DNA from: Weissella confusa
GTDB lineage: Bacteria > Bacillota > Bacilli > Lactobacillales > Lactobacillaceae
Reading direction: 5' to 3'
Length of the DNA: 64,000 bases
NCBI GenBank assembly: GCA_041871065.1
Contig: CP168942.1
Span: 1,954,501 to 2,018,500 of the forward strand
Part shown: positions 29,606 to 52,889 of the stretch, one piece after another
How the letters are laid out: each line of letters opens with the position of its first letter
How positions within the stretch are numbered: position 1 is the first letter of the stretch
Program-made: the position numbers and the translations under genes
The notes under the pieces: generated by a model
What the model was told of the DNA's origin: nothing
The model's input: only the letters and a program-made list of their open reading frames with translations
Database searches by the model: none

Positions 29606-29654
29606 AAAATAACGTCGAATTCAGAACTATACTTCCGAATTCGACGTTATTTTT
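29606..29654. terminator. Long bidirectional intrinsic terminator
   Basis: AAAATAACGTCGAATTC (29606-29622) pairs over 17 bases with GAATTCGACGTTATTTT (29637-29653), with T on both outer sides. It separates the toxin gene (plus) from the ClC gene (minus). Its loop is the core of the third palindrome copy. Confidence 0.92.
29620..29639 (+). repeat. 20-bp near-palindrome, copy 3
   Basis: TTCAGAACTATACTTCCGAA, sitting in the loop and inner stem of the terminator; flanking TCGAA on the left is shared with copy 1. Confidence 0.7.
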
Positions 29655-32395: not shown

Positions 32396-33244
32396 TTAAG
32401 GCTTAACAGTTAGCACAACCACGTTGACTGTCACAGCTGGTAATGGTGTGGCTTCCGCTGCCGCTTGGGCTTCTGGACGCGCGCCCCAGTGCAATGGCGT
32501 CATGTGTAACAGATCAACATACAAGTCAGCTGGAATTTGCCATTGGTATGAAATCTCTGTTTGTGTGGCGTCTGGGTAGTTCTCCATGAAGCGGTCGACC
32601 ACTTTTTGGTTACTATACGTGTGATTTGGTGAATCCACAGGGTACAACATTTCACGCAATTCGTGTAGATAACCAGATGATGGGACCACCTTCACCAACG
32701 TTCCCTCGGGTGCCAAGACACGCTTGAATTCTTCATACGCACTTGGTGAGAAGAACTCCACGATACTGTCAAAGCTATTGTCGTTAAATGGTAGGTTCGC
32801 TAAGTCAGCGACTGCAAAGAACGCATCTGTGTCCAATTGCGTTGCCAAGTTAACCCCTGCCTTAGAAATATCGAAACCAATACCGGTATCGATGTTGCCA
32901 CGCTTGGCTATCAAACGGGCAAATGGCGTCCCTTCACCGGTTCCCACATCCATGATGCGTTGTGGGTCGGCAGGCAATTGGTCCGCAACCGCGTCCACGA
33001 TGCCATCGAACAAACCGGCCGTCAAAACACGACGACGAGCCGCCAACATGGCATCATCATACTCCGTATTGACTGCGTGGTTCAAGAAATAAAGGGAACC
33101 CTTCTTATTAATGTCCAAACGGTGGTTATGCGCACATACCAAGGTATTGCCTTCAACGTGGTCATAAGGCTCGCCATCTACAGTACAGCGGAACATGTCC
33201 AAGTGTTCGCTGACGAACTTAATCCCTTTTTCAATCTTCTTCAT
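32396..33244 (-). CDS. rlmA: 23S rRNA guanine-N1 methyltransferase, RlmA family
   Basis: Predicted to methylate G745 or G748 of 23S rRNA near the macrolide site. It has 282 residues. The SAM motif is IMDVGTGEGTPFARL. The N-terminal zinc module normally has Cys-x2-Cys and Cys-x3-His; here it is FRCTVDGEP (second Cys replaced by Asp) and VCAHNHRLD. KKGSLYFLNH is the family signature after it. The ATG at 33244 has GAGGA 5 bases upstream and overlaps the upstream acetyltransferase gene by 14 bases. Confidence 0.85.
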   Translation of the reverse strand: MKKIEKGIKFVSEHLDMFRCTVDGEPYDHVEGNTLVCAHNHRLDINKKGSLYFLNHAVNTEYDDAMLAARRRVLTAGLFDGIVDAVADQLPADPQRIMDVGTGEGTPFARLIAKRGNIDTGIGFDISKAGVNLATQLDTDAFFAVADLANLPFNDNSFDSIVEFFSPSAYEEFKRVLAPEGTLVKVVPSSGYLHELREMLYPVDSPNHTYSNQKVVDRFMENYPDATQTEISYQWQIPADLYVDLLHMTPLHWGARPEAQAAAEATPLPAVTVNVVVLTVKP

Positions 33245-33767
33245 GTTTATCCTCATTACTCAAGTCAATATCGTATGCTCGTCGGCTACCGGCTAACTGG
33301 CCACGGTAAGTAAAGCCACGACGTGCAATAATGGCTTGCATTTTCTTATTTTTATCATGTGTATCAATCCGAATATAATCATACCCCTTTGCCCGGGCTG
33401 TCGCAAATAAATGCGTGAACAGCTCTGTCGACAAATGGTAGCCCTGGTGTTGGAATGACACCGCCATGCGATGAATAACCGCATAAGGCTTACGCTTAGT
33501 TGGGTACAGCCAGCGACCGCCTTGGAGACGCTGGTAGTTCACGTCTTTCTCTTGCCAAAGCGTGGCTGTGGCGACGATTTCGTCATCGAGTTGCAGAATG
33601 TACGCGTACCCTTTAGCGATGTCGGCTTTGATGATTTCTGGGGATGGATAGCCATTATCCCACTGTGGATTATGATCAATAGACATGACTGCCTTAGCAT
33701 CTGATATAATTTGCCAAATTGCATCGGCATCAGCCATAGTTGCCTGCCGGTAAGTTATATTAGCCAT
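33231..33767 (-). CDS. GNAT family N-acetyltransferase
   Basis: A 178-residue acetyltransferase. It starts MANITYRQATMADADAIWQII, keeps IHRMAVSFQHQGYHLSTELF as the acetyl-CoA strand and loop (a divergent RxxGxG), and has KMQAIIARRGFTYRG near the end. The substrate is unknown. GAGGTGG lies close before the ATG. It is translationally coupled to rlmA. Confidence 0.82.
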   Translation of the reverse strand: MANITYRQATMADADAIWQIISDAKAVMSIDHNPQWDNGYPSPEIIKADIAKGYAYILQLDDEIVATATLWQEKDVNYQRLQGGRWLYPTKRKPYAVIHRMAVSFQHQGYHLSTELFTHLFATARAKGYDYIRIDTHDKNKKMQAIIARRGFTYRGQLAGSRRAYDIDLSNEDKHEED

Positions 33768-33999: not shown

Positions 34000-35199
34000 T
34001 TAGTCTTCGAAACCTTCAGTCGTCATTGATGCTTGGTACAAAGCCACAACATCATCAACCGTCAAGTTCACGTAACCACCCTCGTGATCCAAACCACCGA
34101 TCTTAACAGCTGACTCAGCCATTGCGCGGAAGTTCGTGTCATCGTTGATATCAACACCTTGCAAAGTCGTTGGGACATCCAATGACTTTACCCAGTCGTA
34201 AGTGGCTTGGATAGCCTTTTCAGCAACGACTTGGTCGTCAGCGTCTTGGATATCCCAAACGTTACGTCCGAAGCGAGCAAACTTAGCAACCGTGGCTGCT
34301 GACAAAGCACGCTTCATCCAACGTGGCGTCAAGATTCCCAAACCAACACCGTGAGTGATGTCGTAGAAGGCTGACAACTCGTGCTCAATTGGGTGAACCG
34401 TCCAGCCGTTCACGTTTCCTGAACGTACCAAACCGTTCAAAGCCATCGTTGAGGCCCACATCAAGTTAGCACGGGCATCGTAGTTGTCTGGCGTTTCCAA
34501 AGCAACTGGTGCCCACTTGATAACGGCACGCATGATACCTTCAATCATACCGTCAGAAATGTCTGTGTTCTCGGCACGGTCGAAGTATTGCTCAGTCAAG
34601 TGTGAGAAGATGTCGAATGATCCGGCAGCCGTTTGCCACTTTGAAACTGAGTACGTCAATTGTGGGTCCAAGAATGAAACAGCTGGTGTGTTTGGTCCAT
34701 ACGTACCAATCTTAGCGTTCAATTCTGGGTTTGAGATAACTGAACCGGCATTCATTTCAGTACCCGTTGCAGCTAACGTCAAGATGTCGACAACTGGCAA
34801 TTGGTTCAACTTTGAACGGTACTTTACACCGTGGTCAGCGACCAAGTCCCAGGCATCCCCATCATAAAACTTTGCTGATGCAATCACCTTAGATGCATCG
34901 ATAACTGATCCACCACCAACGGCCAAAATGACGTCGATGTCGTTCTCCTTGGCCAAACGTTGACCCTCGCGAACTGAATCAATCTTTGGGTTAGGCTCGA
35001 TGCCGTCCAATTCAACGACGTTCAAACCTTCCAAAGCCTTCATAACACGCTCATACAAGCCAGAACGCTTGATTGAACCACCACCGTACGTCAACAAAAC
35101 GTTTTGACCAAATTGGGCCACGGCATCGTGCAACTCAGCATCGATGTGGTTCTTTCCAAAGCGAATATCCGTCTTATTTACAAAGCGAAAATCTTCCAT
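34000..35199 (-). CDS. Iron-containing alcohol dehydrogenase (YqhD/BDH type)
   Basis: Reduces aldehydes to alcohols with NAD(P)H. It has 399 residues. The nucleotide-binding GGGSVIDASK is near residue 95, AATGTEMNAGSV follows, and the metal site is carried by GSFDIFSHLTEQYF (Asp, His) and HPIEHELSAFYDITHGVGL (His, His), all intact. GGAGG lies 9 bases before the ATG. It is a single-gene transcript with its own promoter and terminator. The exact substrate is not shown by context; heterofermentative bacteria use such enzymes to reoxidise cofactor (inference). Confidence 0.92.
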   Translation of the reverse strand: MEDFRFVNKTDIRFGKNHIDAELHDAVAQFGQNVLLTYGGGSIKRSGLYERVMKALEGLNVVELDGIEPNPKIDSVREGQRLAKENDIDVILAVGGGSVIDASKVIASAKFYDGDAWDLVADHGVKYRSKLNQLPVVDILTLAATGTEMNAGSVISNPELNAKIGTYGPNTPAVSFLDPQLTYSVSKWQTAAGSFDIFSHLTEQYFDRAENTDISDGMIEGIMRAVIKWAPVALETPDNYDARANLMWASTMALNGLVRSGNVNGWTVHPIEHELSAFYDITHGVGLGILTPRWMKRALSAATVAKFARFGRNVWDIQDADDQVVAEKAIQATYDWVKSLDVPTTLQGVDINDDTNFRAMAESAVKIGGLDHEGGYVNLTVDDVVALYQASMTTEGFED

Positions 35200-35354: not shown

Positions 35355-38300
35355 TTAGCGTGTTGCTTGCTCATCTTCCTTGCGTCGACGCCAGAACGCC
35401 AACAAAAGACCGAACAAACCACTCGCAACCATGGCAGCAATCACAACCAAGAAGTCATTCTCAGTTACGCGACCTGTCAAATTCATTGCTTGCTTTGCAC
35501 TTTCCAAAGGCACAATTGAATCTTGAATGACAGCTGCCGTTTCAGGCAACTCAGTGATGCGTGCATCAGCTGTGTTAGCCGTCTTTGCTTGTTGCTCATT
35601 ACCAGCAGCTGCTAGTAGTGAAGCGTTGTTATCTGCATTTTGTGCAACACCTTGCGCTTGCCAAGCGACGTTTTGCGTCGTGTTAGCAGTTGCACTAGTT
35701 TGGCCTGCCGTTTGTGAACCAGTAACTTGTGCACCAGCCGTTTGACCAGCAACAGTTACGTTGTTCGCTTCAGAGCCATCGCGTGACTCGTTAGCTGGTC
35801 CAGCCACGTTCACTTGCTCACCTTGGGCACCGCTGTTGTTGTTAGCAGTTGCGCCAGATGTGTTCGTGTGGTCACCGTTTTGGTTGTTATCCGCAACAGA
35901 TGAACCAGGCTTGTTACCCTTGTCCGTGTTGTTTTGATCAGCACCATCATTTGCTGGTGCGAATGACACAACAAAGTCTTGGATGTCCATATCGTTTGGC
36001 GTAGCAGGCTCACCAAGAACCATGTACCCGGCAGTTGCCTTACCATTCTCATCCCAAGCCGTAGCTACGAACTTGGCGTCGCTTTGGTCAAAGGTTGATG
36101 GACCATCTTCCAATCCAACGTGGTCAAAGTAACCCGTCGCTTGAAGTGCTGCCATCAATGAGTCGTACGTCTTACCATCTGGTGCCTTAACCGTCATCTT
36201 TAGCTTGCCTTGCTCAGCCTTAGCTTGCAACTCAGCATCAACAGACTTGAAGTCATCAACGTTAATCTCGGCGTCAGACTTACCCATTACCGTACCGATA
36301 ACGTTGCCGTCTTCATCCTTAACTTGAATCTTTTGACCATCCAACGGTGCATAAACAACCTTCATTTGCGTGGTTCCCGCAGCAAAGGTTGGGTTCGCCT
36401 TAACGGCTTCTTCCAATGAAGCGTATTGCGTACCATCAGGTGCAACAACACGGTGGGCATAACCATCGATGTTCAAGTTTTGATCAACACGGTTCATAGC
36501 TTCAACAGCGTTCGTCACGTTAACCTTCGTATCCGTGTAACCCGTTGAAACAATGGATGCAAGCGTGGCATCATCCTTTTGCAACTTAGCCAAGGCATCA
36601 GCAACCGTCGTCAACTTTTGCGCGTTTGCGTTACCAGCAGCTGGCTCTTCGCCCTTATCGAAACCAGAATCAGTTCCCAACTTCACGACAACCTTGGCAG
36701 GATCTGGCGTGTACGTTACCAAGTAGTTCGTACCAGCAGGCACACCATCAACCGCAATCATGCCGTCAGTCAATGCTACTGCATTTCCTTGCGCATCCGT
36801 TACCGTAGCCGTGTAACCAGTCTTACCAGGCACTTGCACATTCTTAGCACCAGCTTGCACTGACACTTCAGCCGTTGGCAAGTACATCACCGTGACATCC
36901 CCATCAGCAGGCACATCCAACGTCTTACCATCAGTCGTCTTCGTTGACGTTCCGTCAGGCGTAATCGTCGTCTTAACACCATTTGGCGTCAACTCCGTGT
37001 ATTGTGCCGTTCCTGAACCGTCAGTCACAAAGATAAACGGCTTGTTACCATTCTTTGAAACTGTCACAACTTGGGCATCCTTAGCACCTGGCACGTTAGC
37101 CGTAGCCGTACCATTTGCGTCCTTGCTCATTTGCACAACCGTTTGCTTACCGTTATCGTCCGTCACAATCGCGAAGGCCGTATCACCGTCAGCAACCGTC
37201 GTTGAAACTTGCCCTGACTTAACTGGTGCTGCTGGTGTCTTCACAACATTGGCATCAGCCGGCTTTGACGTGGCAGTCAAAACGTTCATCGCGTTTTGCA
37301 AGTCCGTCATCGTCGTTGTGTCGTTGTTAGCCAACAAGTTCGTCACTTGCTTGCGCGCAGCAACCACATTCGTGTCTGTTGCATCAGCCGTTTGATCAAC
37401 CAACTTTTGCGCAGCCTCACGGGTCGTGTTCAACTTAGCCGTCATGTCATCCAAACGAGCTTGGATATCACTCATGCCTGAACGAAGCGTCGTTGCCGTC
37501 GTATCGTCTTGGCCGGCTGCGTTTTGCAAGTCCGTCACTTGTTGGTTAACATCACCAAGCTTGTTCTTCTTAGCCATTTCAACTTGGTCTTGCAAGTTGG
37601 CAGGCACCTTCACTGCATTGGCATCAGCGACCGCTTGCTTCAACGTTGCTTGCGCCGTAGCGACCGCGTTATCGTAAGCCGTCTTAGCCGTGTCAGCATC
37701 ACCATCGTTGTTCAGTGCATCGTCAACCGCCTTCTTGGCAGCTGTTACGTCAGCATCGTCAGATACGTTCGTTGGCACAACCGTTGCATCGGCCGTTTGC
37801 AACTTAGCAACTGCCTTCGCAACATCAGTGGCTGTACCCGTCTTTGCAGCATCCTTAACCGCTGCAACACGGTTCTTTACGTCGTCATTGTCACCGTTCT
37901 TCACAGCCACAACCGCGTCGTCGGCCTTATCAACTGCCGTTTGGCGAACATCATCAACTGCCTTGATATCATCTTGCAATTGCTTGCGAGCGTCATCAAT
38001 AGCAGTCTTCGTTGCCGTCTTATCAGCCGTCAACTCGTTCAAATGATCGATGTCGTTTTGAATAGCCGTCATGTCTTGATCTGCATACTTAGGTGCGTCA
38101 TCGTTCCATGATGATTCATCATCAGAAGCGCCGTCCTTCGTTGTTTGCAAGGCCTTCTTGGCATCCGCAACGGCCGTCGTCAACTTGTCTGTTGCCTTGG
38201 TCAACTTGTCCGTGTCCAAACCATCAGCGTTCAAGATATCGTTAACAGCCTTCTTGGCAGCGTTAACATCAGCATCATCTGAAATGTTAGCAGCCACAAT

Positions 38301-39404
38301 CGTATCAACCGCTGTCTTTACCTTGTTGATTGCCGTTTCGATGGCCTTCTTCGTACCGTTGGCAATTGCACCCTTCAACGTATCAACCGTCGTCTTAACT
38401 TCGGCATCGTCGTTATCTGCGTTTGCATCAACCGTATCGTTACCATCATCCACTGCGCCATCACGGGCACCCGTTACAACTGCAATATCCTTGCGCAATT
38501 GCTCGCGCGCGTCATCGATGTCAGACTTCGTAGCATTCTTGTCAGCCACCAAATCGTTCAACTTCTTAACGTCATTTTGGATATCGTCAGTATCTTGGTC
38601 CGTGTATAGTGAGGCAGCCTTATCCCAAGCTGAAGTGTCGTCGTTGGCGTCTTGCTTCGCATCAGCCAACTTCGTCTTAGCTTGTTCAATAGCGTTGTCA
38701 TAAGTAGCCTTAGCCTTGGCAACGTCACCATCGTTCTTCAATGCATCATCAACAGCGGTCTTAGCAGCCGTCACATCAGCATCATCTGAAACGTTTGTTG
38801 GCACAACCGTTGCGTCAGCCGTTTGCAACTTAGCAACTGCCTTGGCAATATCTGAAGCCGTACCAGTCTTCATAGCGTTATCAACCGCTGCTTGGTAGTT
38901 CTTCACGTCGTCGTTGTCGCCATTTACAACTGCCTTGTCAGCATCGTCAGCCGTCTTAACCGCTACATCGCGAACACTAGCAACCGTCTTGATGTCATCT
39001 TGCAATTGCTTGCGAGCTGCATCAATGGTCTTCTTCATTGCCGTCTTGTCAGACGTCAATTCGTTCAAGTGGTCAATGTCGTTTTGAATAGCCGTCGTTG
39101 TTTGATCGGCATACTTAGGGGCATCAGCAGTCCATGACTTCTCATCGTTAGCTGCGCCATCCTTCGTATCTGCCAAATCCTTTTGTGCCTTGGCAACGGC
39201 CGTGTTGAAATTATCAACTGCGTTTTGTACGACAGTCTTATCCAACTTAGGGGCGTTCAAAGCATCGTTAACCGCCTTCTTCGCGTCAGCCACATCATCA
39301 GAATCTGAGATATTTGGCACAACAACCGTATCAACGGCTGTCTTAACGTTTTCGATGGCTGTCTTGATGTCAGAAGCCGTTCCGTTATCAAGGGCGTCAT
39401 TCAA
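35355..39404 (-). CDS. Giant surface adhesin, 3' part (stalk repeats and wall anchor), separated by a frameshift
   Basis: Continues the adhesin begun at 44941. The open frame carries 1349 residues from its first ATG and can be read upstream to about 39468, where it joins the 5' part after a one-base correction; on its own it has no ribosome site and no signal peptide. Order: four helical units of about 171 residues arranged as two 342-residue super-repeats, a beta-rich region of about 400 residues, an Asn/Ala/Thr/Gly-rich spacer, then LPETA (35535-35549), a 28-residue spacer, a membrane helix and RRRKEDEQ. If unrepaired, the fragment would be neither exported nor anchored. Confidence 0.8.
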   Translation of the reverse strand: MNDALDNGTASDIKTAIENVKTAVDTVVVPNISDSDDVADAKKAVNDALNAPKLDKTVVQNAVDNFNTAVAKAQKDLADTKDGAANDEKSWTADAPKYADQTTTAIQNDIDHLNELTSDKTAMKKTIDAARKQLQDDIKTVASVRDVAVKTADDADKAVVNGDNDDVKNYQAAVDNAMKTGTASDIAKAVAKLQTADATVVPTNVSDDADVTAAKTAVDDALKNDGDVAKAKATYDNAIEQAKTKLADAKQDANDDTSAWDKAASLYTDQDTDDIQNDVKKLNDLVADKNATKSDIDDAREQLRKDIAVVTGARDGAVDDGNDTVDANADNDDAEVKTTVDTLKGAIANGTKKAIETAINKVKTAVDTIVAANISDDADVNAAKKAVNDILNADGLDTDKLTKATDKLTTAVADAKKALQTTKDGASDDESSWNDDAPKYADQDMTAIQNDIDHLNELTADKTATKTAIDDARKQLQDDIKAVDDVRQTAVDKADDAVVAVKNGDNDDVKNRVAAVKDAAKTGTATDVAKAVAKLQTADATVVPTNVSDDADVTAAKKAVDDALNNDGDADTAKTAYDNAVATAQATLKQAVADANAVKVPANLQDQVEMAKKNKLGDVNQQVTDLQNAAGQDDTTATTLRSGMSDIQARLDDMTAKLNTTREAAQKLVDQTADATDTNVVAARKQVTNLLANNDTTTMTDLQNAMNVLTATSKPADANVVKTPAAPVKSGQVSTTVADGDTAFAIVTDDNGKQTVVQMSKDANGTATANVPGAKDAQVVTVSKNGNKPFIFVTDGSGTAQYTELTPNGVKTTITPDGTSTKTTDGKTLDVPADGDVTVMYLPTAEVSVQAGAKNVQVPGKTGYTATVTDAQGNAVALTDGMIAVDGVPAGTNYLVTYTPDPAKVVVKLGTDSGFDKGEEPAAGNANAQKLTTVADALAKLQKDDATLASIVSTGYTDTKVNVTNAVEAMNRVDQNLNIDGYAHRVVAPDGTQYASLEEAVKANPTFAAGTTQMKVVYAPLDGQKIQVKDEDGNVIGTVMGKSDAEINVDDFKSVDAELQAKAEQGKLKMTVKAPDGKTYDSLMAALQATGYFDHVGLEDGPSTFDQSDAKFVATAWDENGKATAGYMVLGEPATPNDMDIQDFVVSFAPANDGADQNNTDKGNKPGSSVADNNQNGDHTNTSGATANNNSGAQGEQVNVAGPANESRDGSEANNVTVAGQTAGAQVTGSQTAGQTSATANTTQNVAWQAQGVAQNADNNASLLAAAGNEQQAKTANTADARITELPETAAVIQDSIVPLESAKQAMNLTGRVTENDFLVVIAAMVASGLFGLLLAFWRRRKEDEQATR

Positions 39405-39690
39405 CTTACCAACCGTCTTTGTAACTTCGGCATCACCGTTGTCCTTGTTGGCGTCGGCAGTGTTCTTACGTCAGTAACGGCATCGTTACGAACACCCTTC
39501 ACAACGTCGATGTCGTCTTGCAATTGCTTGCGAGCGTCATCGATTTGCTTCTTGGTAGCCGTCTTGTCGGCCGTCAAACCATTCAACGTATCAATATCCT
39601 TTTGGATAGCGCTAGTCACGTCAGTTTGATCTGCGTAAAGTGATGAAATCTTATCCCAAGCAGTAACATCACCCTTGGCACCAGTCTTGG
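37640..39690 (-). repeat. Two tandem 1026-bp (342-codon) super-repeats in the adhesin
   Basis: Blocks recur at exactly 1026 bases: GTTGGCACAACCGTTGC at 37771 and 38797, and TTTTGAATAGCCGTC around 38061 and 39087. Each super-repeat contains two related units of about 513-519 bp (residue pattern ...ARKQLQDDI... then ...SDDADVTAAK...). The frameshift lies inside the second super-repeat. Outer limits are approximate. Confidence 0.8.
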
Positions 39691-42600
39691 CATCGTTCAA
39701 CTTCGTCTTCAAACCTGACAAGATACCATCAATAATATCTTGGTCATGTTGGATTTGCTTCAACGTCGTTGCGTCATCACCAACCTTAGTTGCCAAATCT
39801 GCAATCGTGTCCGTCAACTTTTGACGATCATCTGCTGGCAAATCAGCAATTTGATCCGTCAAGTTTGCTGGTTCTTCCGTCGTCGCGTTTGACTTAGCCG
39901 TTGCCAAAGCAGTTGCTGCAGCTGACTTTGCACTATCAAGTGCCGTTGCAACAGATGACAAAGCAGCTGACGTCACTGCACCCGAGTTCAAAGCTGAAAC
40001 GTAAGCTGATTCAGCTGACATAACAGCGTCGTCATCTGCGACATTTGCTGCGACTGAAGTTGACGTTGCCAACTTCAAGGCCGTGCTTGCTGAAGCAACC
40101 ATTGATGACGTTGCGGCTGAATTAGCAGCGACGCTCGTCAAGATTGAAGCCATTGAGTTAACGATGTCATTACCAGTTGCCTTTGAAGCAGTTACTGAGG
40201 CAGCTGACTTTGCATCTGACAAAACAGCCTTGTATGACTTAACAGCTGAATCATAAGCTGACAAAGCTGAACTCATGTCAGTTGCCTTAACGCCGGTTGA
40301 CTTGGCTCCCAATGAGTTCAAGTCTGACACAACGGCTGCCATTGACGCATCTTCTTGATCAGTCAAGTTGCTATCAATAACCGCTACCTTAGCGGCACTC
40401 TTCATGCTGTTCAACGTTGACGTTGCAGCTGACGTTGCGGCTGAAAGGGCCTTGTTTACCGTAGCAAGTTCATCTGGTGTCTTGGCACCTGACTTCAATG
40501 CTGAAACATAGGCTGTTTCGGCTGACTTAACTGCTGCGTCATCAGTAATATCTGAATCAACAACCGTTGACGTTGCCAACTTCAAGGCCGCGCTCGCTGA
40601 AGCAACCATTGATGACGTTGCGGCTGAATTAGCAGCGATGCTCGTCAAAATTGACGCCATTGAGTTAACAATGTCATTTCCTGTCGTCTTTGAAGCAGTT
40701 ACTGAAGCAACTGACTTCGCATCTGACAAGACCGTCTTATATGACGCAACAGCTGAGTTGTATGCTGACAAAGCTGAGCTCATGTCAGCAACCTTTACGC
40801 CATTTGACTTGGCTCCCAATGAGTTCAACTTAGTAACAATAGATGCCATTGAAGCATCTTCTTGGTCAGTCAAATTGCTGTCAACGACCGCTACTGAAGC
40901 AGCGCTCTTCATGTTGCTCAAAGCTGACGTCGCTGCTGACGTTGCAACAGAAAGTGCCAATGATACTGATGACAATGCATCTGACGTTGTGGCGCCTGAG
41001 TTCAAAGCTGACGCATAATCTGTCTCGGCATTCTTAACCGCTACATCATCAGCAATATCTGAATCAACAACCGTTGACGTTGCTAACTTCAAAGCCGTAC
41101 TTGCTGAAGCAACCATTGATAGCGTTGCATCTGAGTTAGCAGCCACGCTCTTCAATACAGATGCCATTGAGTTAACAATGTCATTACCCGTCGTCTTAGC
41201 AGTTGAAGCAGCTGATGTCTTAGCCGTGTTCAAAACTGACGTAAAGTGTGACAATGAATCACTCAAAACGGCCATCTCTGAGTCCAATGCACTCTTCGTG
41301 TAGATTGAATCTGCACCCATTGATTGCACCTTTGCCAATTCTGAGTTCAACGCTGAGTTACCCTCAGTTTGATCAGCAATGTTGCTTGGAATTGCGTATG
41401 ATGCTGCTGACTTCTTAGCAGCAGTCAATTCAGTGTTAGCCGTAGAAACTGCAACGCTCAATGCTGAAGATGCTGACGCAATATCCTTACCAGCAATCAG
41501 GTCTGAAGCGAATGCTGATTCAGCAGACTTAACAGCAGTGTTATCTTCAACAACTGAAGAAACCGGCGTGTCAATTGCTGATTGCAATGCACCAACAGCC
41601 GTCGCCAATGAAGCTGACGTTACACCACTTGAAGTTGCCAAAGCTGATACGTAACTTGCAATTGAAGAAACGTAGCTAGACATTGATGTCGTCTTCATGT
41701 CTGGGTTTGCCAATGATGACAAAACAGAGTCAGCGTTCACAACCGCAGTACGGTTTTCGATTTCAGTCTTAGTAGCTGAACTGTTGCTCAAAGTAGAGCG
41801 CAATGCTGAAACAGCATCTGACAAATCGCCAGCCAGGCTTGCTGTACCTAGTGACGTCAAAACTGAGCTAGCAGCCAAACTCTTTTCGGTACGTGCAGCA
41901 GAGAATCCTGACAAAGCACTAGACAAGATGCTCATTTGATCAACCAATTGTGACTTCGTGTACGTTGAATCGGCACCCATACTGTTCGTCTTAGTTACAA
42001 TTGCAGCCAAGCTTGAGCTAGCTTCACTGTTAATTTGATCCAACAAGTTGCTTGGTACAGCGTCGTTCTTGGCCTTAGTCTCAGCCTCTTGCAAAGCAGT
42101 ATTAGCGTTAGCAACGGCGTCTTGCAAAGCCTTCAAACTATCTGTTGTGTCCTTACCAGTTGCAAGGTCATTGGCATAGTTAGTTTGTGCCTTTTGCACA
42201 TCACCGTCGTCCAAAACGTTCTTATTAACAACGTTTTCAACCGCTGTCGCAAGTGCTACACGTGCATCGTCAAGATCAGTTGCGCTGGCCTTATCCATGC
42301 CACCATCTACCAAATCATTCAAACGCTTCGTTGCTGCTGCAACTGCTACATCATCGTTGCTTGCTTGTTCGTCAGTTGCCATATCGGCCAACAAAACTGA
42401 ACGCTTGTAAACGATATCTGCAGTCGTTGAAGTCTTGTCCGCAATCGCTTCATCCAATGCCTTCTTGGCTTCTTGAACCTTCGTTCCCATCTCGGCTGTT
42501 ACTGAGTTACTTGTCGTTTGGCCTTCAAGTTCAGCACGCGTGTGGGCGATGTCTTCATCCTTATCAGTTGTGTTAGCGTCTGAGAATGACGTTACAGCGC

Positions 42601-44941
42601 TGGTCAACTTTGTTGCGTCGTCTGCCATCGCAGTTGCACTGGCTGCGCTCTTCTCCAACGCAGTCAACGTTGATGTTACCGCATTAACAGTGTCTAGCGC
42701 CGATATCTTCTTTGCGTCAGTATCTGTCTTAAGTTGGTCAATAATACCTTGAACCTTGGTAGACATACCTTGCAATTGCTTGATTGCTTGATTGATATCA
42801 GACTTATCTTGGTCAGTCTTAGCATTCTTCAAAGCGTCTTGAGCAGTCGTGATACTTGCATCAATACTGTCCTTGGCTTTTTGAGCAGTCGTTACTTGTG
42901 CATCAAAATCATCTTGGTTAGTCGTATAAATTACAGTAAGGGTCTTGTCCGTTCCAGCAACAGCTGACAACTTGCTTGATGAATCAATCTTGAAGCCCTT
43001 AATTTCAGGTGCGTCATAGTTTGAGACATAGTGACCGTCAGTCGCTGCTACAGTATCCTTACCACCATTAATTTGAACAGTTTCACCGGCCAACGCAGTA
43101 ACAGTGTTCGTCTGTACCAGGCTAGTTGGGTCCTTCTTGAATTGATAGTTCACTTGAACATCATCAGTAACGTTAGTTCCACGGAAGTAAGAAATACCAC
43201 CGAAGAATGATTGTCCATTACCACCGTTACCTGCAAACAAACCGATAGACATTTCTTGTTGAACAATTACATTGCTCGTAACGGTGCTCAATAGGTACTT
43301 GGCCTTTGTTGCTGCTGTTGCGTTCACAGCAATGGCATCCGCGTTTGCGTACTCAGTATACGTTAGCGTGGCATTCACATACTGTTCTCCATTGATAGTT
43401 GTCATCTTTAAGGTACCATCAGCATTTTTCTGTGGTACCCATAGGTAATCAAAATAAACACCCTTACTTAGATAATTTTGAATAGCCGTATACTTGTCTG
43501 AGTCAGATCCGACATATGTTGCGTTTGATGCAGTGCTAGACACAGATATCTTGTTTCCATTACCGTCATACGCTTCTTTGGCATAGGCATATCCAGTCTG
43601 ATCATTAACATTTTTAGTAACTGCATTACCTTCAATGTTTTTCGAGCCATTCACACCATTAATAGTGTTTGCAGTACTATTGTCGGCGTAGAGCGCCCCG
43701 TTAGCATTAGTTTGTCGAACGTGGACCAAAAGTGGATCGATGTCACCCTGACGAGCAATGTACAAGTCTCGTCCCGCAATAACGGCATTTGGTACACCTT
43801 CAATACCATCACTCAAGTTCAGAGTAGCCAACTTAGGTCCCATTTTCAAAGTTCCCATATCTGTTGGTTCGGCTGTTGTCATAATCACACCAACAGCTTG
43901 ACCTCCACCATACATTCCGTTACTAACACCTTGACCACTGGTATAAAGGTTAGACTTCGATCCAGTAGTACCGTCTGCCAAAATAGGCAAAAGTACATAC
44001 CCACCACGAATTTCAAACTCATTAGTTGTTTTTAGTTTAGAACCATATGCTAAAGTTCCACCTTCGTTAGAAATTTGTGGCGTGATGGCTTTCCAGTCGA
44101 TACTATTTTCCTTACCTGGCAACAAACTTGAGACAACACTATCTGCTACTGAGTTTGCAACGGACACAACGCTCTGCAGGTCAGTCGCATTTGATACTGT
44201 TGATGCCTTGTAACTATTATTCCAAGTAACATCTCCCGTGATATCACCCGTTTGCTTAAAGTTAGGGTTTACATTCGTGTTACCATCAGAACCAGAACCG
44301 ATATACGTAAATTGAGACTTTGCGACAGCGTTTGAAGTAGCCACGTGCTCAGATGCTGCCAAAGATCCTGGCTTCGTAATCGTCCAATCTGCACTTGATG
44401 GTGTGGCATTATACGTTGAAACATTAGTGTTAGCTGATGCTGGCGTTTGCACATCTTGATTAGCATCAGTTGACGTGCCCAAAGCATACGCCTTGCGCAC
44501 ATTACCATCGGCGTCCACATCATCTTGCACCTTCACTGCATCAGTTGGCACAACAACACTACTTGCTAGTGATTGTGACGCACTCAAAGAAGCTTCTGCT
44601 GAAACAACAGACGCTGACGTTGAAACTGATACCGGTGCAACTGAGCTTGCTGATGAGGCTGAAACTTCAGCGCTCACTGAAGAAGCGGGTGCTACTGATG
44701 CACTCGCGCTATCTAATACAACTGAGTCAGTTGGGGTGCTAACCTCAGCTGTTACTGAACTTTCTGATGCTGGAACCACAGCATCGACGCTATCAGCAGA
44801 TGCGTCCGCTGACAACATTAAAAGCCCCCCTAACAATGATACCGTGGCCATTCCAGCGACTACCCAACGCTTACCGGCCTTGTACATCTTGTAGTGAGAC
44901 TTTACCTCATAGTTACCCTTATTAATATTCATTTGTCGCAT
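39401..44941 (-). CDS. Giant surface adhesin with KxYKxGKxW signal, 5' part, ends at a frameshift
   Basis: A 1846-residue reading frame. The KxYKxGKxW-type signal peptide (HYKMYKAGKRWVVAG, about residues 17-31) and its hydrophobic core indicate export; a Ser/Ala/Val-rich linker follows to about residue 170, then a globular region to about 690 rich in G, N and aromatic residues (possible ligand-binding domain, not identified), then helical stalk units including three 169-residue repeats. AAGGA lies 9 bases before the ATG. The last 22 residues after about position 1824 are out of frame. With one added base near 39466 the gene spans 35355-44941 as 3195 codons plus stop. Confidence 0.82.
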   Translation of the reverse strand: MRQMNINKGNYEVKSHYKMYKAGKRWVVAGMATVSLLGGLLMLSADASADSVDAVVPASESSVTAEVSTPTDSVVLDSASASVAPASSVSAEVSASSASSVAPVSVSTSASVVSAEASLSASQSLASSVVVPTDAVKVQDDVDADGNVRKAYALGTSTDANQDVQTPASANTNVSTYNATPSSADWTITKPGSLAASEHVATSNAVAKSQFTYIGSGSDGNTNVNPNFKQTGDITGDVTWNNSYKASTVSNATDLQSVVSVANSVADSVVSSLLPGKENSIDWKAITPQISNEGGTLAYGSKLKTTNEFEIRGGYVLLPILADGTTGSKSNLYTSGQGVSNGMYGGGQAVGVIMTTAEPTDMGTLKMGPKLATLNLSDGIEGVPNAVIAGRDLYIARQGDIDPLLVHVRQTNANGALYADNSTANTINGVNGSKNIEGNAVTKNVNDQTGYAYAKEAYDGNGNKISVSSTASNATYVGSDSDKYTAIQNYLSKGVYFDYLWVPQKNADGTLKMTTINGEQYVNATLTYTEYANADAIAVNATAATKAKYLLSTVTSNVIVQQEMSIGLFAGNGGNGQSFFGGISYFRGTNVTDDVQVNYQFKKDPTSLVQTNTVTALAGETVQINGGKDTVAATDGHYVSNYDAPEIKGFKIDSSSKLSAVAGTDKTLTVIYTTNQDDFDAQVTTAQKAKDSIDASITTAQDALKNAKTDQDKSDINQAIKQLQGMSTKVQGIIDQLKTDTDAKKISALDTVNAVTSTLTALEKSAASATAMADDATKLTSAVTSFSDANTTDKDEDIAHTRAELEGQTTSNSVTAEMGTKVQEAKKALDEAIADKTSTTADIVYKRSVLLADMATDEQASNDDVAVAAATKRLNDLVDGGMDKASATDLDDARVALATAVENVVNKNVLDDGDVQKAQTNYANDLATGKDTTDSLKALQDAVANANTALQEAETKAKNDAVPSNLLDQINSEASSSLAAIVTKTNSMGADSTYTKSQLVDQMSILSSALSGFSAARTEKSLAASSVLTSLGTASLAGDLSDAVSALRSTLSNSSATKTEIENRTAVVNADSVLSSLANPDMKTTSMSSYVSSIASYVSALATSSGVTSASLATAVGALQSAIDTPVSSVVEDNTAVKSAESAFASDLIAGKDIASASSALSVAVSTANTELTAAKKSAASYAIPSNIADQTEGNSALNSELAKVQSMGADSIYTKSALDSEMAVLSDSLSHFTSVLNTAKTSAASTAKTTGNDIVNSMASVLKSVAANSDATLSMVASASTALKLATSTVVDSDIADDVAVKNAETDYASALNSGATTSDALSSVSLALSVATSAATSALSNMKSAASVAVVDSNLTDQEDASMASIVTKLNSLGAKSNGVKVADMSSALSAYNSAVASYKTVLSDAKSVASVTASKTTGNDIVNSMASILTSIAANSAATSSMVASASAALKLATSTVVDSDITDDAAVKSAETAYVSALKSGAKTPDELATVNKALSAATSAATSTLNSMKSAAKVAVIDSNLTDQEDASMAAVVSDLNSLGAKSTGVKATDMSSALSAYDSAVKSYKAVLSDAKSAASVTASKATGNDIVNSMASILTSVAANSAATSSMVASASTALKLATSTSVAANVADDDAVMSAESAYVSALNSGAVTSAALSSVATALDSAKSAAATALATAKSNATTEEPANLTDQIADLPADDRQKLTDTIADLATKVGDDATTLKQIQHDQDIIDGILSGLKTKLNDAKTGAKGDVTAWDKISSLYADQTDVTSAIQKDIDTLNGLTADKTATKKQIDDARKQLQDDIDVVKGVRNDAVTDVRTLPTPTRTTVMPKLQRRLVS
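39850..42037 (-). repeat. Tandem 507-bp (169-codon) repeats in the adhesin stalk
   Basis: The segment ATTGATGACGTTGCGGCTGA starts at 40101 and 40608, with a diverged copy at 41115; the TTGATCAG/TTGGTCAG block recurs at about 40357, 40864 and 41371. Spacing is exactly 507 bases each time. A fourth, longer and diverged unit extends to about 42037. DNA identity between the first two units is high. Confidence 0.82.
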
Positions 44942-45380: not shown

Positions 45381-48300
45381 TTAGTCGTTGTGCAAGTTCA
45401 TTGAGTTTTCAATATCAGCGATTGAAGGAATCTTCGTACCCTCTTCAGTTGATACAACAACAGGATCTGCAACGACCTTGTCTTCAACAGCTTGGTATTG
45501 CTTCATACCAGTACCAGCTGGGATCAACTTACCGATGATAACGTTCTCCTTCAAACCAACCAATGGATCGTTCTTTCCACGGATAGCAGCGTCAGTCAAG
45601 ACACGAGTCGTCTCTTGGAATGATGCGGCTGACAAGAATGAGTTCGTCTCCAATGATGCCTTGGTAATACCAAGCAAAACTGGACGTGCTGTGGCTGGCA
45701 AACCACCCTTCAACAACGTCTCTTCGTTAGCATCACGGAATTGCGCGATATCCATCAACGTACCTGGCAACAAGTCCGTTTCACCCGGATCCATGACACG
45801 CACCTTACGAAGCATTTGGCGAGCCATAACTTCGATGTGCTTGTCAGAGATCTCAACACCTTGCATACGGTAAACCTTTTGCACTTCACGCACAATGTAG
45901 TTTTCCGTAGCCAACGTGTCACGTACTTGGATGATTTCCTTAGGGTCAGCTGAACCTTCGTTCAACGTCTCACCACGGTGGATTTGATCACCTTCGGCCA
46001 CACGCATGCGTGCAGTCATTGGCAACGTGTAAGTACGCGTATCCGTCTCACCTTGAACAGTAACTTCCTTAGTACGTTCTGCTGGGTTTTCTTCAATAGA
46101 AGTAACCTCACCAGTAACTTCAGTAATCATAGCACGACCCTTAGGGTTACGTGCTTCAAAGATTTCTTGCACACGAGGAAGTCCTTGCGTGATATCGTTT
46201 CCGGCAACACCACCAGTGTGGAAAGTACGCATAGTCAATTGCGTACCAGGCTCACCGATTGATTGTGCGGCAACAGTACCAACAGCTTCACCAACTTCAA
46301 CAACGTCACCAGTAGCCATGTTGCGACCGTAGTCGTATACGCAGACACCGTGTTCCGTGTTGCAAGTAAAGGCTGAACGAATGTTAACAGTCGTTACGCC
46401 GGCGTTGACAATGGCCTTAGCCTTGTCTTCGTCGATCATTTGGTTGTGAGCAACGATGACTTCACCAGTCTTAGGGTCGATAACAGCCTTTTGTGCATAA
46501 CGTCCCAAAATACGCTCGTACAATGACTCGATGACTTCGTTACCGTTCATGATTGCAGAAACATCCAAACCACGATCAGTACCACAGTCGATCTCACGAA
46601 TGATAACGTCTTGCGCAACGTCAACCAAACGACGAGTCATGTAACCTGAGTCGGCCGTCTTCAAGGCCGTATCAGTCATACCCTTACGAGCACCGTGAGT
46701 TGAGAAGAACATTTCCAAAACTGACAATCCCTCACGGAAGTTGGCAATGATAGGCAACTCCATGATACGTCCGTTAGGCGCAGCCATCAAACCACGCATA
46801 CCGGCCAATTGCGTAAAGTTAGAAATGTTACCACGAGCTCCTGAATCTGACATCATGAAGATGTTGTTATCAGGCTCGAAGTGCTCAATAAGCTTAGCAG
46901 TAATGTCATCCTTCGCTTGGTTCCAGATGGCAATAACACGCTCATAACGCTCATCGTCAGTAATCAATCCACGACGGAATTGCTTAGAAACAGTAGCGAC
47001 TTGCTTGTGAGCTTCTTCGATGATTCCTGGCTTTTCCTTCAAGTCAGTAACGTCGGCCACACCAACCGTCAAACCAGACTTAGTTGACTCATCGTAACCC
47101 AAGTCCTTCATGCGGTCCAATAGCAATGACGTTTCAGTAACCTTGTAGATCTTGTAGACTTCGGCAACGATGTCTGACAAGAATCCCTTCTTGAATGGAG
47201 GCAAGATTGGCGTCTCAGCAAAGTGTGCCTTGATGTCAGTTCCTGGCTCCAAGAAGAAGCGGTCGTCAATGGCGTGCAAGTTAGCCTCGGTTGGCTCGTT
47301 CAAGTATGGGAAGTCGACTGGCAAGATGTCGTTAAAGAACAACTTACCAACAGTCGTCGTCATGATACGTGAACGTTGCTCGTCAGTGAATGGCTTTTCT
47401 GCAGGGAATGAAGACGTTTGAACTCCAATACGAGTGTGCAAGTGCACATACTTGTTTTGGAATGCAGTACGAGCTTCGTTGATATCCTTGAAGACCATAC
47501 CTTCACCTTCACGACCAGCTTCTTCAGTCGTCAAGTAGTAGTTACCGATAACCATGTCCTGTGATGGGGCCACGATAGGCTTACCATCCTTAGGTGCCAA
47601 GATGTGTCCAGCGGCAAGCATCAACAAACGAGCTTCTGCTTGAGCTTCATCTGACAAAGGAACGTGGATGGCCATTTGGTCACCGTCAAAGTCGGCGTTA
47701 TAAGCTTCAGTAACCAATGGGTGCAAACGCATAGCCTTACCTGGCACTAGGACAGGTTCGAACGCTTGAATACCCAAACGGTGAAGCGTTGGTGCACGGT
47801 TCAAAAGAACTGGGTGCTCCTTGATAACGTCATCCAAGACGTCCATAACAGCGTCATCACGACGGTCGATCATACGCTTTGCGGCACGGATGTTTCCAAC
47901 CAAGTCACGCGCAACCAATTCCTTCATGATGAATGGGCGGAACAATTCCATAGCCATTGGACGTGGCAATCCCATTTGGTTCATCTTCAAGAAAGGACCA
48001 ACGTCGATAACTGAACGTCCTGAGTAGTCAACACGCTTACCAAGCAAGTTTTGACGGAAACGTCCTTGCTTACCCTTAAGCATGTGTGACAATGACTTCA
48101 ATGGACGGTTACCAGGACCTGTTACAGGACGTCCGCGACGACCGTTGTCAACCAACGCGTCGACGGCTTCTTGCAACATACGCTTTTCGTTTTGCACGAT
48201 GATTCCAGGTGCGTTCAACTCCAACAAACGCTTCAAACGGTTGTTACGGTTGATAACACGACGGTACAAATCGTTCAAGTCAGACGTTGCAAAACGTCCA

Positions 48301-49037
48301 CCTTCCAATTGCACCATTGGACGCAAGTCAGGTGGGATAACTGGAATAACATCCATAACCATCCACTCTGGCTTGTTACCTGACTTAACGAAAGCTTCGA
48401 TAATGTCCAAACGACGAACGGCGCGAACACGCTTTTGACCAGTGGCCTCACGCAATTCTGCCTTCAACGTCTCAACTTCGGCTTCCAAGTCAACGTTTGA
48501 CAACAACGTTTGTACAGCTTCAGCACCCATGCCAGCTTCAAATGCGCTACCATATTCTGCCTTCAACTCGCGGTACTCGCGTTCTGACAACAATTGCTTT
48601 TCAGTCAAAGGTGTATCACCGGCCTTTGTAACCACGTAAGAAGCGAAGTAAATAATCTCTTCCAATGAACGTGGTGACATGTCCAAGACCAATCCCATAC
48701 GTGAAGGGATTCCCTTGAAGTACCAGATGTGTGATACAGGAGCGGCCAACTCGATGTGACCCATGCGCTCACGGCGGACCTTTGAAGACGTTACTTCAAC
48801 GCCGCAACGATCACAAACGATTCCCTTGTAACGAATACGCTTGTACTTTCCGCACGCACATTCGTAATCCTTGGTAGGTCCAAAGATACGCTCGTCGAAA
48901 AGTCCATCCTTTTCAGGCTTGAGCGTACGATAGTTGATTGTCTCAGGCTTCTTAACTTCACCATAAGACCAGCTGCGAATCTTGTCTGGGCTAGCCAGTC
49001 CGATTTGCATGCTTTCAAACTTATTGACATCAATCAA
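45381..49037 (-). CDS. rpoC: DNA-directed RNA polymerase subunit beta'
   Basis: Catalytic clamp subunit of RNA polymerase, 1218 residues, normal for Firmicutes. The N-terminal zinc ribbon with [19 protein letters not shown] is complete, the catalytic [12 protein letters not shown] is intact, and the trigger-loop and jaw regions follow. The start is TTG (49037) with AGGGG 8 bases upstream; the protein then begins [20 protein letters not shown] as expected. It is 163 bases after rpoB, with hairpins in between. Confidence 0.97.
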
Positions 49038-49096
49038 TGGTTTGACCCCTTTCGTAGGTTCCTATATACAATCCAATCCAGCACTTCACTAAGTCC

Positions 49097-49156
49097 GTGC
49101 TTACCATGTTCGAATGATCAAACGCAGTAAGCACGAACCTAGCAATGTGCTAGGTT
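49097..49156 (-). promoter_or_regulatory. Hairpins between rpoB and rpoC
   Basis: GTGCTTAC (49097-49104) pairs perfectly with GTAAGCAC (49127-49134), and AACCTAGC (49136-49143) with GCTAGGTT (49149-49156). No T-run follows, so it is not a simple terminator; it may be a processing or translation-control structure. Confidence 0.5.
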
Positions 49157-49200
49157 GGCTAACAATCTCTTAAAAGTAGCGCAGGGCTAAGAATAATCTC

Positions 49201-52200
49201 TTATTCAGCGTCGTTCAAGTTAACGACACCGTCAGCCTTAGGAGCTGATGCTTCGGCACCGTCGGCAGCAAATTCTTGTGCCAAACGTTGTGCTTCTGCA
49301 TTAGCGGCTTCGATGTTAACGATTGAATCGTCATCATCCATGTCACGCAATTCGATCTCACGATCATCTGCGTCCAAGACCTTCATGTCCAAACCAAGAG
49401 CTTGCAATTCCTTAACCAAGACACGGAATGACTCCGGTACACCTGGCTTAGGGATTTGGTCACCCTTAACGATGGCCTCGTAAGTCTTAACACGACCAAC
49501 AACGTCATCTGACTTGTACGTCAAGATTTCTTGCAAAGTGTGCGCAGCACCATAGGCCTCAAGGGCCCAAACTTCCATTTCACCGAAACGCTGTCCACCG
49601 AATTGCGCCTTACCACCAAGTGGTTGTTGCGTAACAAGTGAGTAAGGTCCGATTGAACGGGCGTGCATCTTGTCGTCGACCATGTGGGCCAACTTCATGT
49701 AGTGCATGATTCCGACAGAAACACGCTTGTCGAAGGCTTCACCAGTACGACCATCGTACAAGACAGTCTTACCGTCTGATGGCAAACCAGCTTCCTTCAA
49801 AGCGTCCCAGATATCCGCGTCACGGGCACCGTCAAAGACAGGTGATGCGATGTGGATACCCAATTCGCGAGCAGCCATACCCAAGTGCAATTCAAGCACT
49901 TGTCCGATATTCATACGAGATGGCACACCCATTGGTGACAACATAATGTCGATAGGCGTTCCGTCTGGCATGAATGGCATGTCTTCTGAAGGCACGATAA
50001 CTGAAACAGTTCCCTTGTTACCGTGACGACCGGCCATCTTGTCACCAACTTGAATCTTACGACGTTGTGCGATGTAAACACGAACCATCATGTTAACACC
50101 TGGTGCCAATTCGTCACCGTTCTCACGCGTAAAGATACGAACGTCTTGAACGACACCGCCACCACCGTGAGGAACACGCAATGACGTATCACGAACTTCA
50201 CGGGCCTTCTCACCGAAGATGGCGTGTAGCAAACGCTCTTCAGCTGACAATTCAGTAACACCCTTAGGCGTAACCTTACCAACCAAAAGATCACCGTCTT
50301 CAACTTCAGCACCGATACGGATAATTCCGCGCTCGTCCAAGTTCTTCAATTGCTCTTCACCAGTGTTAGGGATTTCGCGAGTGAACTCTTCAGGGCCAAG
50401 CTTCGTATCACGAGCCTCTGATTCGTATTCTTCAATGTGGATTGACGTGTAAACATCATCGCGGATCAAACGTTCGTTGATGATGATGGCATCTTCAAAG
50501 TTATATCCTTGCCAAGTCATGAAGGCGATCAATGGGTTTTGTCCCAAAGCCAATTCACCTTGCTCCATTGATGGACCATCGGCCAAAACTTCGTCGGCAT
50601 CAACTGCATCCCCAACCTTAACGATTGGACGTTGGTTGTAGTTCTTACCGGCATTTGAACGACGGAACTTCATCAATTCGTACTTATCAAGTGAACCATC
50701 TTCGCGACGAACGCGGATTTCGCGACCGTCAACGTACTCAACCGTACCAGGGTACTTAGCGATAATGGCAACACCGGCGTCGTGGGCAGCCTTGTATTCG
50801 ATACCCGTACCAATCAATGGTGCGTGTGGATCGATCAAAGGAACCGCTTGACGTTGCATGTTGGCACCCATCAAGGCACGGTTAGAGTCATCGTTTTCCA
50901 AGAAAGGAATTGCGGCCGTGGCAACGGCAACAATTTGCTTAGGAGAAACGTCCATGTAGTCAACTTGGTCGATAGAAACTTCGACGTTTTCCTCACTCTT
51001 ACGAGCTAAAACAACGTCAGAAGCAAATGATCCATCTTCGTTCAAAACTGAGTTACCTTGGGCAACGATGAAGTTATCTTCTTCGTCGGCCGTCAAGTAG
51101 TCAATCTTGTCCGTAACCTTGTGAGTCGTCCAGTCAACACGACGGTATGGCGTCTCAATGAATCCGTAACGGTTAACACGACCGTACGTAGCCAATGAGT
51201 TGATCAAACCGATGTTAGGACCTTCAGGCGTTTCGATAGGGTCCATACGTCCGTAGTGCGTGTAGTGCACGTCTCGGACTTCATAACCGGCACGGTCACG
51301 AGTCAAACCACCAGGTCCCAAGGCAGATAGACGACGCTTGTTCGTCAATTCTCCAAGAGGGTTAGTTTGGTCCATGAATTGTGACAATTGTGATGAACCG
51401 AAGAACTCCTTAACAGCTGCCACAACAGGGCGGATGTTAATCAATTGTTGTGGTGTAACCGTATCTGGGTCTTGGATAGACATACGCTCACGAACCACAC
51501 GCTCCATACGGCTCAAACCGATACGGAATGTGTTTTGCAACAATTCACCCACACGACGGATACGACGGTTACCCAAGTGGTCAATGTCGTCCGTTGCGCC
51601 GATGCCCAATGGCAAGTTCAAGAAGTAGTTCATACCAGCGATAATATCAGCTGGTTGGATCGTACGAACAGATTCGTCAAATTGACCGTTACCGATCACT
51701 GGCAAAACCTTTTCAGGATCCTCTGGGTTTTCAACCAAGATAGTTTGCAACGTCATAGGCGTCGTCACAACACCTTCGTCTGAAGGCGTAAATGTCGTCG
51801 TCTTAAAGTCGTCACGGTCAAGGAATGGTGCCAAAGCAGCCATAACCTTCTTGTCGACAACCGTTCCCTTTTCGGCGATAACTTCACCAGTATCAGGGTC
51901 GGCCAACGTCTCACCCAACGTCAAGCCCATCAAACGCGTCTTCAATGACAACTTCTTGTTGATCTTGTAACGACCAACAGGTGCCAAATCGTAACGCTTT
52001 GGGTCGAAGAAGCGAGCCGTCAACAAGGCACGAGATGAATCGGCCGTCTTTGGCTCACCTGGACGTAGGCGTTCGTAGATGTCCTTCAAGGCCTCTTCGA
52101 CACGTGAGTCGTTGATGTCCTTGTGAACGTCCTTATCCAACGTCAATGAGATTGAATCGTATTGGTCACCCAAGATTTGCAAAACCTCTGAATCTGATCC

Positions 52201-52803
52201 GTAACCCAAGGCACGAACCAATTCAGTAACAGGCAACTTACGCGTACGATCGATACGTACGTAGCTCAATCCCTTTGCGTCTGTTTCAAATTCCAACCAA
52301 GCACCACGGCTTGGGATGAACGTCGTACCGTAGTTAGGACGACCGTTCTTGTCCAATTCCTCGTTGTAGTAAACACCAGGAGAGCGAACAAGTTGTGAAA
52401 CGATAACACGCTCAGCTCCGTTAATGATGAACGTACCTGATGGCGTCATCAATGGGAAGTCACCGAAGAACACGTCTTGTGACTTGATTTCACCAGTTTC
52501 TTGGTTCGTCAAGCGCAACGTTACGTGCAATGGTGCTGAGTAATTTGCATCGTGGTTACGAGCTTCTTCTACTGTGTACTTAGGCTCCATGAGCTTATAG
52601 TCCACAAATTCCAATGACAACTTTCCTTGGAAATCTTCGATTGGCAAAATGTCAGTGAACATTTCACGCAATCCTTCATCCAAGAACCAGTTGTATGAGT
52701 CCGTTTGGATCTCAATCAAGTTAGGCAAATCAAGGACTTCCTTGATTCGTGCGTAACTGCGACGAACACGGTGCTTACCGTACTTTACAAGCGTTCCTAC
52801 CAA
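49201..52803 (-). CDS. rpoB: DNA-directed RNA polymerase subunit beta
   Basis: Catalytic subunit of RNA polymerase and target of rifampicin, 1200 residues. The rifampicin pocket [20 protein letters not shown] and [20 protein letters not shown] are wild-type-like. The start is placed at TTG 52803 because GAGGTGG lies 5 bases upstream and the protein then reads [20 protein letters not shown], which aligns with the first residue of Bacillus RpoB; GTG codons at 52812 and 52839 are alternatives. It is preceded by a structured leader. Confidence 0.95.
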
Positions 52804-52889
52804 GTTTTCCACCTCGCTTTGATTTGGCCAACTGCGCACACCAGTTTCTTTACAGTTTGATTACAAAATCTGTTTTTTACCGGTTTTTG

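What the first reader, a model, noticed from the sequence alone, without database searches (positions are those of the whole stretch)
39455..39475. A one-base deletion splits a 3195-codon adhesin into two frames
The upstream frame ends in out-of-frame residues RTLPTPTRTTVMPKLQ after about codon 1824, while the other frame reads NTADANKDNGDAEVTKTVG, which matches the paralogous repeat (TVDANADNDDAEVKTTVD). The total span 35355-44941 is 9587 bases, one short of a multiple of three, and one inserted base near 39463-39469 restores a single frame from signal peptide to wall anchor. It may be a sequencing error, a real inactivating mutation, or a reversible switch; there is no long homopolymer at the site.
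Basis: seen in the sequence. Interest (0 to 1): 0.7.

Follow-up and report, generated by a model that had tools for sequence, protein, structure and literature searches.

The report
Frame-broken giant lectin adhesin gene
A very long gene for a lectin-like surface protein in the food bacterium Weissella confusa is cut into two reading frames by a single missing base, and its closest relatives are broken at other places, so this looks like a dispensable surface gene that is lost again and again rather than a special switch.

The parts
39401..44941 (-). ORF A: 5' part of the adhesin gene, 1846 aa: KxYKxGKxW signal peptide, lectin-like head, first part of the repeat stalk, then about 22 out-of-frame residues
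   Evidence: PF19258, 60.7 bits; TIGR03715
42872..44524 (-). Head region (aa 140-690), predicted L-type lectin fold, followed by a strand-rich part (MucBP-like: a recalled label, not tested)
39404..39470 (-). Overlap of the two open frames; best frame-switch point 39469
35355..39404 (-). ORF B: 3' part of the same gene, 1349 aa: rest of the repeat stalk, C-terminal part, hydrophobic anchor-like end; no ribosome-binding site found before its TTG
37945..41277 (-). Diverged long repeats with unit spacing 507-519 bp (about 170 codons) on both sides of the break
   Evidence: families D1 and D2
45381..52839 (-). rpoC and rpoB, open over their full length, directly upstream
34000..35199 (-). 399-aa gene downstream (dehydrogenase-like by eye; not searched by family); next to rpoC in six species without the adhesin there

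Best explanation
The gene encodes a giant (about 3200-codon) secreted adhesin of Weissella confusa: KxYKxGKxW signal peptide, L-type-lectin head, long repeat stalk, hydrophobic anchor-like C-terminus. In this strain a one-base loss in the stalk stops translation about 22 codons later. The expected product is a 1846-aa secreted protein that keeps the lectin head but lacks the anchor end, so it would be released rather than displayed; ORF B is not expected to be translated. The break is recent and is one of several different breaks of the same gene among close relatives, i.e. recurrent loss of a dispensable surface adhesin. SHOWN: the frame break in the sequence, its absence at this site in relatives, different breaks in those relatives, low dN/dS on both sides, the predicted lectin fold. 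INFERRED: that the base is really missing in the cell, release of the product, lack of ORF B translation, dispensability, and selection or drift as the cause.
For: Frame switch at 39469. Open at the site: L004 and P0003. Broken elsewhere: L004 has an in-frame stop at 1228-1230, a 101-bp out-of-frame deletion and a one-base frame change near 7037; P0003's tail matches the shifted frame in 8 of 9 residues and P0005's in 6 of 6; P0004's tail matches no frame well (6 of 15). A divergent W. confusa allele is cut into P0033 and P0045 (same listed contig length 76,656), with tails in shifted frames (21 of 28 and 11 of 17). Stalk dN/dS, window against L004: 0.145 before the break; 0.101, 0.217 and 0.125 in three segments after it. 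Intact alleles exist: 37 of 64 database clusters examined have both the signal motif and the anchor end (22 of 49, 15 of 15). Lectin fold.
Against: No reads. Two ordinary genes in the sampled DNA of this assembly also look frame-broken: a membrane-type glycerophosphodiesterase and a permease-like gene. They could be residual assembly errors, and so could this one. No intact copy with this very head was found, so a working same-head allele is inferred. Over all of ORF A alignable to L004, divergent head included, dN/dS is 0.421, so low dN/dS holds for the stalk rather than the head.
Confidence: 0.6

Rival explanations
1. Assembly or sequencing error: the cell's gene is intact and the base is missing only in the consensus.
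For: One isolated single-base event in a gene whose two halves both show low stalk dN/dS; two ordinary genes in the sampled DNA also look frame-broken.
Against: Apart from this site no switch above gain 5.1 in the 64-kb window; rpoB, rpoC and giant frames of 3883 and 1790 codons are open. No homopolymer at the site. The closest relatives, from other assemblies, are broken too, at other sites.
Confidence: 0.32
2. Reversible on/off switch (phase variation) by replication slippage at the site, or transcriptional slippage, giving a mixed population or some full-length product.
For: Adhesins are frequent phase-variation targets (recalled); broken and complete alleles coexist among related proteins. 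A G6 run in the signal-peptide region is the same in both strains, but it is in frame in both and over 5 kb from the break.
Against: No run of 5 or more equal bases within 3 kb of the site; the only simple repeat found in the gene is a four-copy dinucleotide elsewhere; breaks lie at different places in the relatives.
Confidence: 0.05
3. Two genes, or a programmed frameshift or translational coupling: ORF B is made by re-initiation at the TTG that overlaps the ORF A stop.
For: The ORF A stop and the first ORF B start codon overlap by four bases in the ORF listing.
Against: No Shine-Dalgarno-like word in the 361 nt searched around the ORF B start; ORF B begins inside the repeat stalk, without the signal motif; relatives are continuous there.
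Confidence: 0.03

Closest known systems
Frame-broken giant mucus-binding-protein genes of lactic acid bacteria (LAB-Secretome, PMC3017865; passages seen)
   Same: Very large adhesin genes of lactic acid bacteria, many of them pseudogenes, mostly through frameshifts; the authors thought it unlikely that all are sequencing errors and raised strand-slipping.
   Different: Those families have MUB domains and Gram-positive anchors; here no MUB or Gram_pos_anchor match, a lectin-like head and a KxYKxGKxW signal. Here relatives show that break positions differ between copies.
SasG, Aap, Pls and SraP L-type-lectin adhesins of staphylococci, and YwfG (Lactococcus lactis, recalled) (solved structures)
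   Different: 10-18% identity in those rows; no sequence match to any solved chain for the head (E <= 0.1) or ORF B (E <= 0.01); the stalk was not modelled.
Bifidobacterium breve pilus genes switched by an intragenic G-tract (PMC9187656; passages incl. abstract seen)
   Same: A surface adhesin gene split into two frames, where the length of a short tract decides whether the second frame is read.
   Different: There the tract is G11/G12 and variable in culture; here there is no tract at the break.

Membership tests
Frame-broken pseudogene allele (GeneTack scheme, PMC3711429, Table 1 passage seen) | Frame-break position not conserved among homologues | tested here: met
   L004 and P0003 are continuous at the site and broken elsewhere
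Frame-broken pseudogene allele (GeneTack scheme, PMC3711429, Table 1 passage seen) | The break is present in the organism's DNA, not only in the assembly | not testable with these tools
   No reads held
Slippage-type phase-variable (contingency) locus | Short tandem repeat or homopolymer at the frame change | tested here: not met
Slippage-type phase-variable (contingency) locus | Mixed frame states within one population | not testable with these tools
   No reads held
Translationally coupled gene pair or programmed frameshift | Overlap or shift site conserved in relatives | tested here: not met
   L004 and P0003 have one continuous frame here
Translationally coupled gene pair or programmed frameshift | Ribosome-binding site for the second frame | tested here: not met
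   No Shine-Dalgarno-like word in 39200-39560
KxYKxGKxW signal-peptide surface proteins | N-terminal KxYKxGKxW domain above the curated cut-off | tested here: met
   PF19258 60.7 bits against 23.6; TIGR03715 38.8 against 18
L-type-lectin adhesins (SasG/Aap/SraP/YwfG-like) | L-type lectin fold in the head | tested here: met
L-type-lectin adhesins (SasG/Aap/SraP/YwfG-like) | Binds a glycan | not testable with these tools
   Needs binding assays
Sortase-anchored LPXTG proteins | LPXTG-type sorting signal recognised by Gram_pos_anchor | tested here: not met
   No Pfam/NCBIfam match in ORF B; LPETA here but MPDSA in intact W. confusa alleles

The most novel reading that the evidence does not exclude
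The locus is under alternating selection: giant lectin adhesins are repeatedly broken (releasing a soluble, anchorless lectin or none) and replaced by incoming alleles through recombination between strains, a slow population-level on/off cycle without a slippage tract. Stalk dS between the two strains (0.10-0.21) above rpoC (0.011), rpoB (0.0135) and the next gene (0.042), and a divergent head, fit allele import.
Probability: 0.12. Interest if true: 0.55.

Novelty: new member of a known kind. Interest (0 to 1): 0.32.

Why it matters
Weissella confusa is used in fermented foods and studied as a probiotic (recalled). Whether a strain displays, sheds or lacks its large lectin adhesin would affect adhesion and aggregation, and an annotation of this sequence would list two separate proteins. 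The locus is also a fair place to ask a question left open in PMC3017865 (passages): are frame-broken giant adhesin genes of lactic acid bacteria real losses, errors, or switches? Here break positions differ between copies and stalk dN/dS is still low on both sides.

Tried and rejected
Slippage switch: rejected for lack of any tract at the site. Second gene or coupling: rejected. Old pseudogene in this strain: disfavoured by stalk dN/dS 0.10-0.22; other values that I saw are 0.292 for the first 170 codons against L005 and 0.421 over all of ORF A alignable to L004 with its divergent head. Tandem Repeats Finder found nothing (the spacing of 507 or more exceeds its 500-base limit). Led nowhere: a plasmid search and a stalk alignment (not used); 20 of 60 related genomes match ORF A, but outside the own genome the best match is 36% over aa 12-207.

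Literature, judged by titles and starts of abstracts only: Weissella confusa + KxYKxGKxW (1 paper), Weissella + adhesin + frameshift, Weissella + pseudogene + surface protein (of which 10 listed), strain VTT E-062653, W. cibaria + W. confusa + mucus-binding, Weissella + L-type lectin: none appears to describe this gene; none was opened. Searches (3 papers; 199, 15 listed) gave the four papers whose passages I saw. SasG search (10 papers, 8 listed): not used.

Limits: the protein searches work in a length window, with words from the first 500 residues and a cap of about 8000 scored candidates, and clusters mix contig-edge fragments with real breaks, so 37 of 64 clusters is not a population frequency; P0051 among the 64 is probably another gene (30% identity). 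One search gave nothing for P0004/P0005 because gapped alignment rows had replaced the sequences (found); repeated. The scan did not flag the split glycerophosphodiesterase, so its sensitivity is limited, and part of the scanned DNA was picked for its giant surface genes, so rates from it are descriptive only. Only the head was modelled; the stalk was not.

Full report
WHAT IS THERE. The window lies in G000 (2.35 Mb, 3 contigs). Its species is W. confusa by inference: G060 is labelled same species, and its contig C7 has the same length (45,164) and rpoC-side adhesin start as the named record of W. confusa VTT E-062653. On the minus strand, directly after rpoB-rpoC, lie ORF A (39401-44941, 1846 aa) and ORF B (35355-39404, 1349 aa from a TTG). 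ORF A starts with a KxYKxGKxW signal peptide and ends in about 22 residues in a frame that does not look coding; the switch is at 39469. The open frames overlap by 67 nt. The 9587-base span is one short of a multiple of three. In the scan of 348.5 kb of own DNA (3 kb counted twice) this is the strongest switch (26.2; next 16.2 in L051 and 9.8 in L100).

RELATIVES AT THE SITE. L004 (W. confusa VTT E-062653) aligns over the site at 93% DNA identity and is continuous there. P0003, a 2625-aa database protein (11 member sequences), matches ORF A (1-1845) and ORF B (1847-2621 of P0003) without a gap. So the two ORFs are halves of one gene.

RELATIVES ELSEWHERE. L004 is broken by an in-frame stop (1228-1230), a 101-bp out-of-frame deletion and a one-base change near 7037; it also has a 78-bp in-frame deletion. 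The two deletions show 5 and 11 bp of microhomology. P0003 ends in a tail matching the shifted frame of the window (8 of 9 residues), P0005 likewise (6 of 6), while P0004's tail matches no frame well (6 of 15). P0004 and P0005 share the first stalk part at 89-90% but have another head (54-57%). So none of the four closest copies (VTT, P0003, P0004, P0005) runs from signal peptide to anchor end; in three of the four a frame break is shown. More distant alleles are often complete: of 64 clusters examined, 37 have both ends (22 of 49; 15 of 15), among them W. confusa P0022, P0024, P0031 and W. cibaria P0008, P0052, P0059 (names). Other broken alleles: P0033 and P0045, same listed contig length 76,656, and P0021 (tail 18 of 40 in the shifted frame).

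SELECTION AND HISTORY. Stalk, window against L004: dN/dS 0.145 (883 codons) before the break; 0.101 (183), 0.217 (149) and 0.125 (1005) after it. No clear relaxation is visible downstream, so the break is recent or not real. Including the divergent head, ORF A gives 0.421 (1430 codons); the first 170 codons against L005 give 0.292. Stalk dS (0.10-0.21) exceeds rpoC (0.011), rpoB (0.0135), the next gene (0.042) and 32396-33256 (0.043), but 29654-30916 has 0.18. Over about 2.3 kb of the window's head region no DNA match of 300 bp or more to L004/L005 was listed. This allows, but does not prove, allele exchange. In six other species of the genus whose DNA after rpoC I read (of 26 other-species genomes with an rpoC match), no homologue of ORF A, ORF B or P0025 was found there (tblastn E <= 1e-10, hits over 60 aa), and rpoC is followed by the counterpart of the 399-aa gene, in L088 with one 149-codon open frame between.

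ERROR OR MUTATION. Against error: no other switch above gain 5.1 in the window; rpoB, rpoC and giant frames of 3883 and 1790 codons are open. For error: a membrane-type glycerophosphodiesterase is split (258-codon frame here, 613 and 620 in the two relatives at 37-40% identity; matches at 24-27% have frames of 237-286 and may be another type; G003, 66% complete, is in pieces), and a permease-like gene has 374 codons here against 448-454 in 7 of 8 relatives with a match (G003 again in pieces). Both may be natural or artefacts. Two further giant surface genes of this genome carry stop codons or frame breaks (see Noticed in passing), which fits loss of surface genes but equally a consensus with errors. 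Without reads I give 0.32 to error.

MECHANISM. Most likely a spontaneous one-base loss in a dispensable gene; the product would be a secreted lectin without its anchor (inferred). Slippage switching, recoding and coupling lack their defining features. Comparison: PMC3017865 (passages) reports many frame-broken large mucus-binding genes in lactic acid bacteria and leaves the cause open; PMC3542869 (passages) reports deletion or pseudogenes of mucus-binding genes in L. helveticus DPC 4571; PMC9187656 (passages) is the switch model that this case lacks; PMC3711429 (passages) gives the classification used in the membership test.

Noticed in passing
L051:6844-13434 (G000:C1:1776844-1783434): A second gene with a related N-terminus (48% over aa 3-119) is broken into at least three frames (318, 873, 892 codons; switch gains 6.2 and 16.2), with a transposase-like ORF (by eye) on the opposite strand beyond it.
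   Followed up: partly
L052:678-15998 (G000:C1:138678-153998): A KxYKxGKxW gene with a 4064-codon open frame is cut by one in-frame stop, after which the same frame stays open for at least 1042 codons.
   Followed up: no
G000:C1:1856121-1856222 (L054): The KxYKxGKxW match before a 2819-codon surface-protein frame contains an in-frame TAG.
   Followed up: no
L055:6168-7999 (G000:C1:194168-195999): Membrane-type glycerophosphodiesterase gene in two frames; 613 and 620 codons in the two nearest full relatives.
   Followed up: partly
L100:9228-10691 (G000:C1:489228-490691): Permease-like gene (by eye, no NCBIfam match) in two frames; 448-454 codons in 7 of 8 relatives with a match.
   Followed up: partly
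L056:5771-6402: Two short overlapping frames (89 and 140 codons) that may be one split gene; no NCBIfam match.
   Followed up: no
window 44825-44830: A G6 run inside the signal-peptide coding region, the longest homopolymer of the gene, identical in the second W. confusa strain; a possible slippage spot, in frame in both.
   Followed up: partly
window 35355-35600: The C-terminal LPETA motif is MPDSA in intact W. confusa alleles and has no evident counterpart in the W. cibaria ends, while a hydrophobic end and FWRR tail are shared: the anchor may not be a usual LPXTG signal.
   Followed up: no
L004:5241-5692: The VTT strain's copy carries 101-bp and 78-bp deletions with 5 and 11 bp of microhomology, a sign that short repeats may drive change in this gene.
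   Followed up: partly
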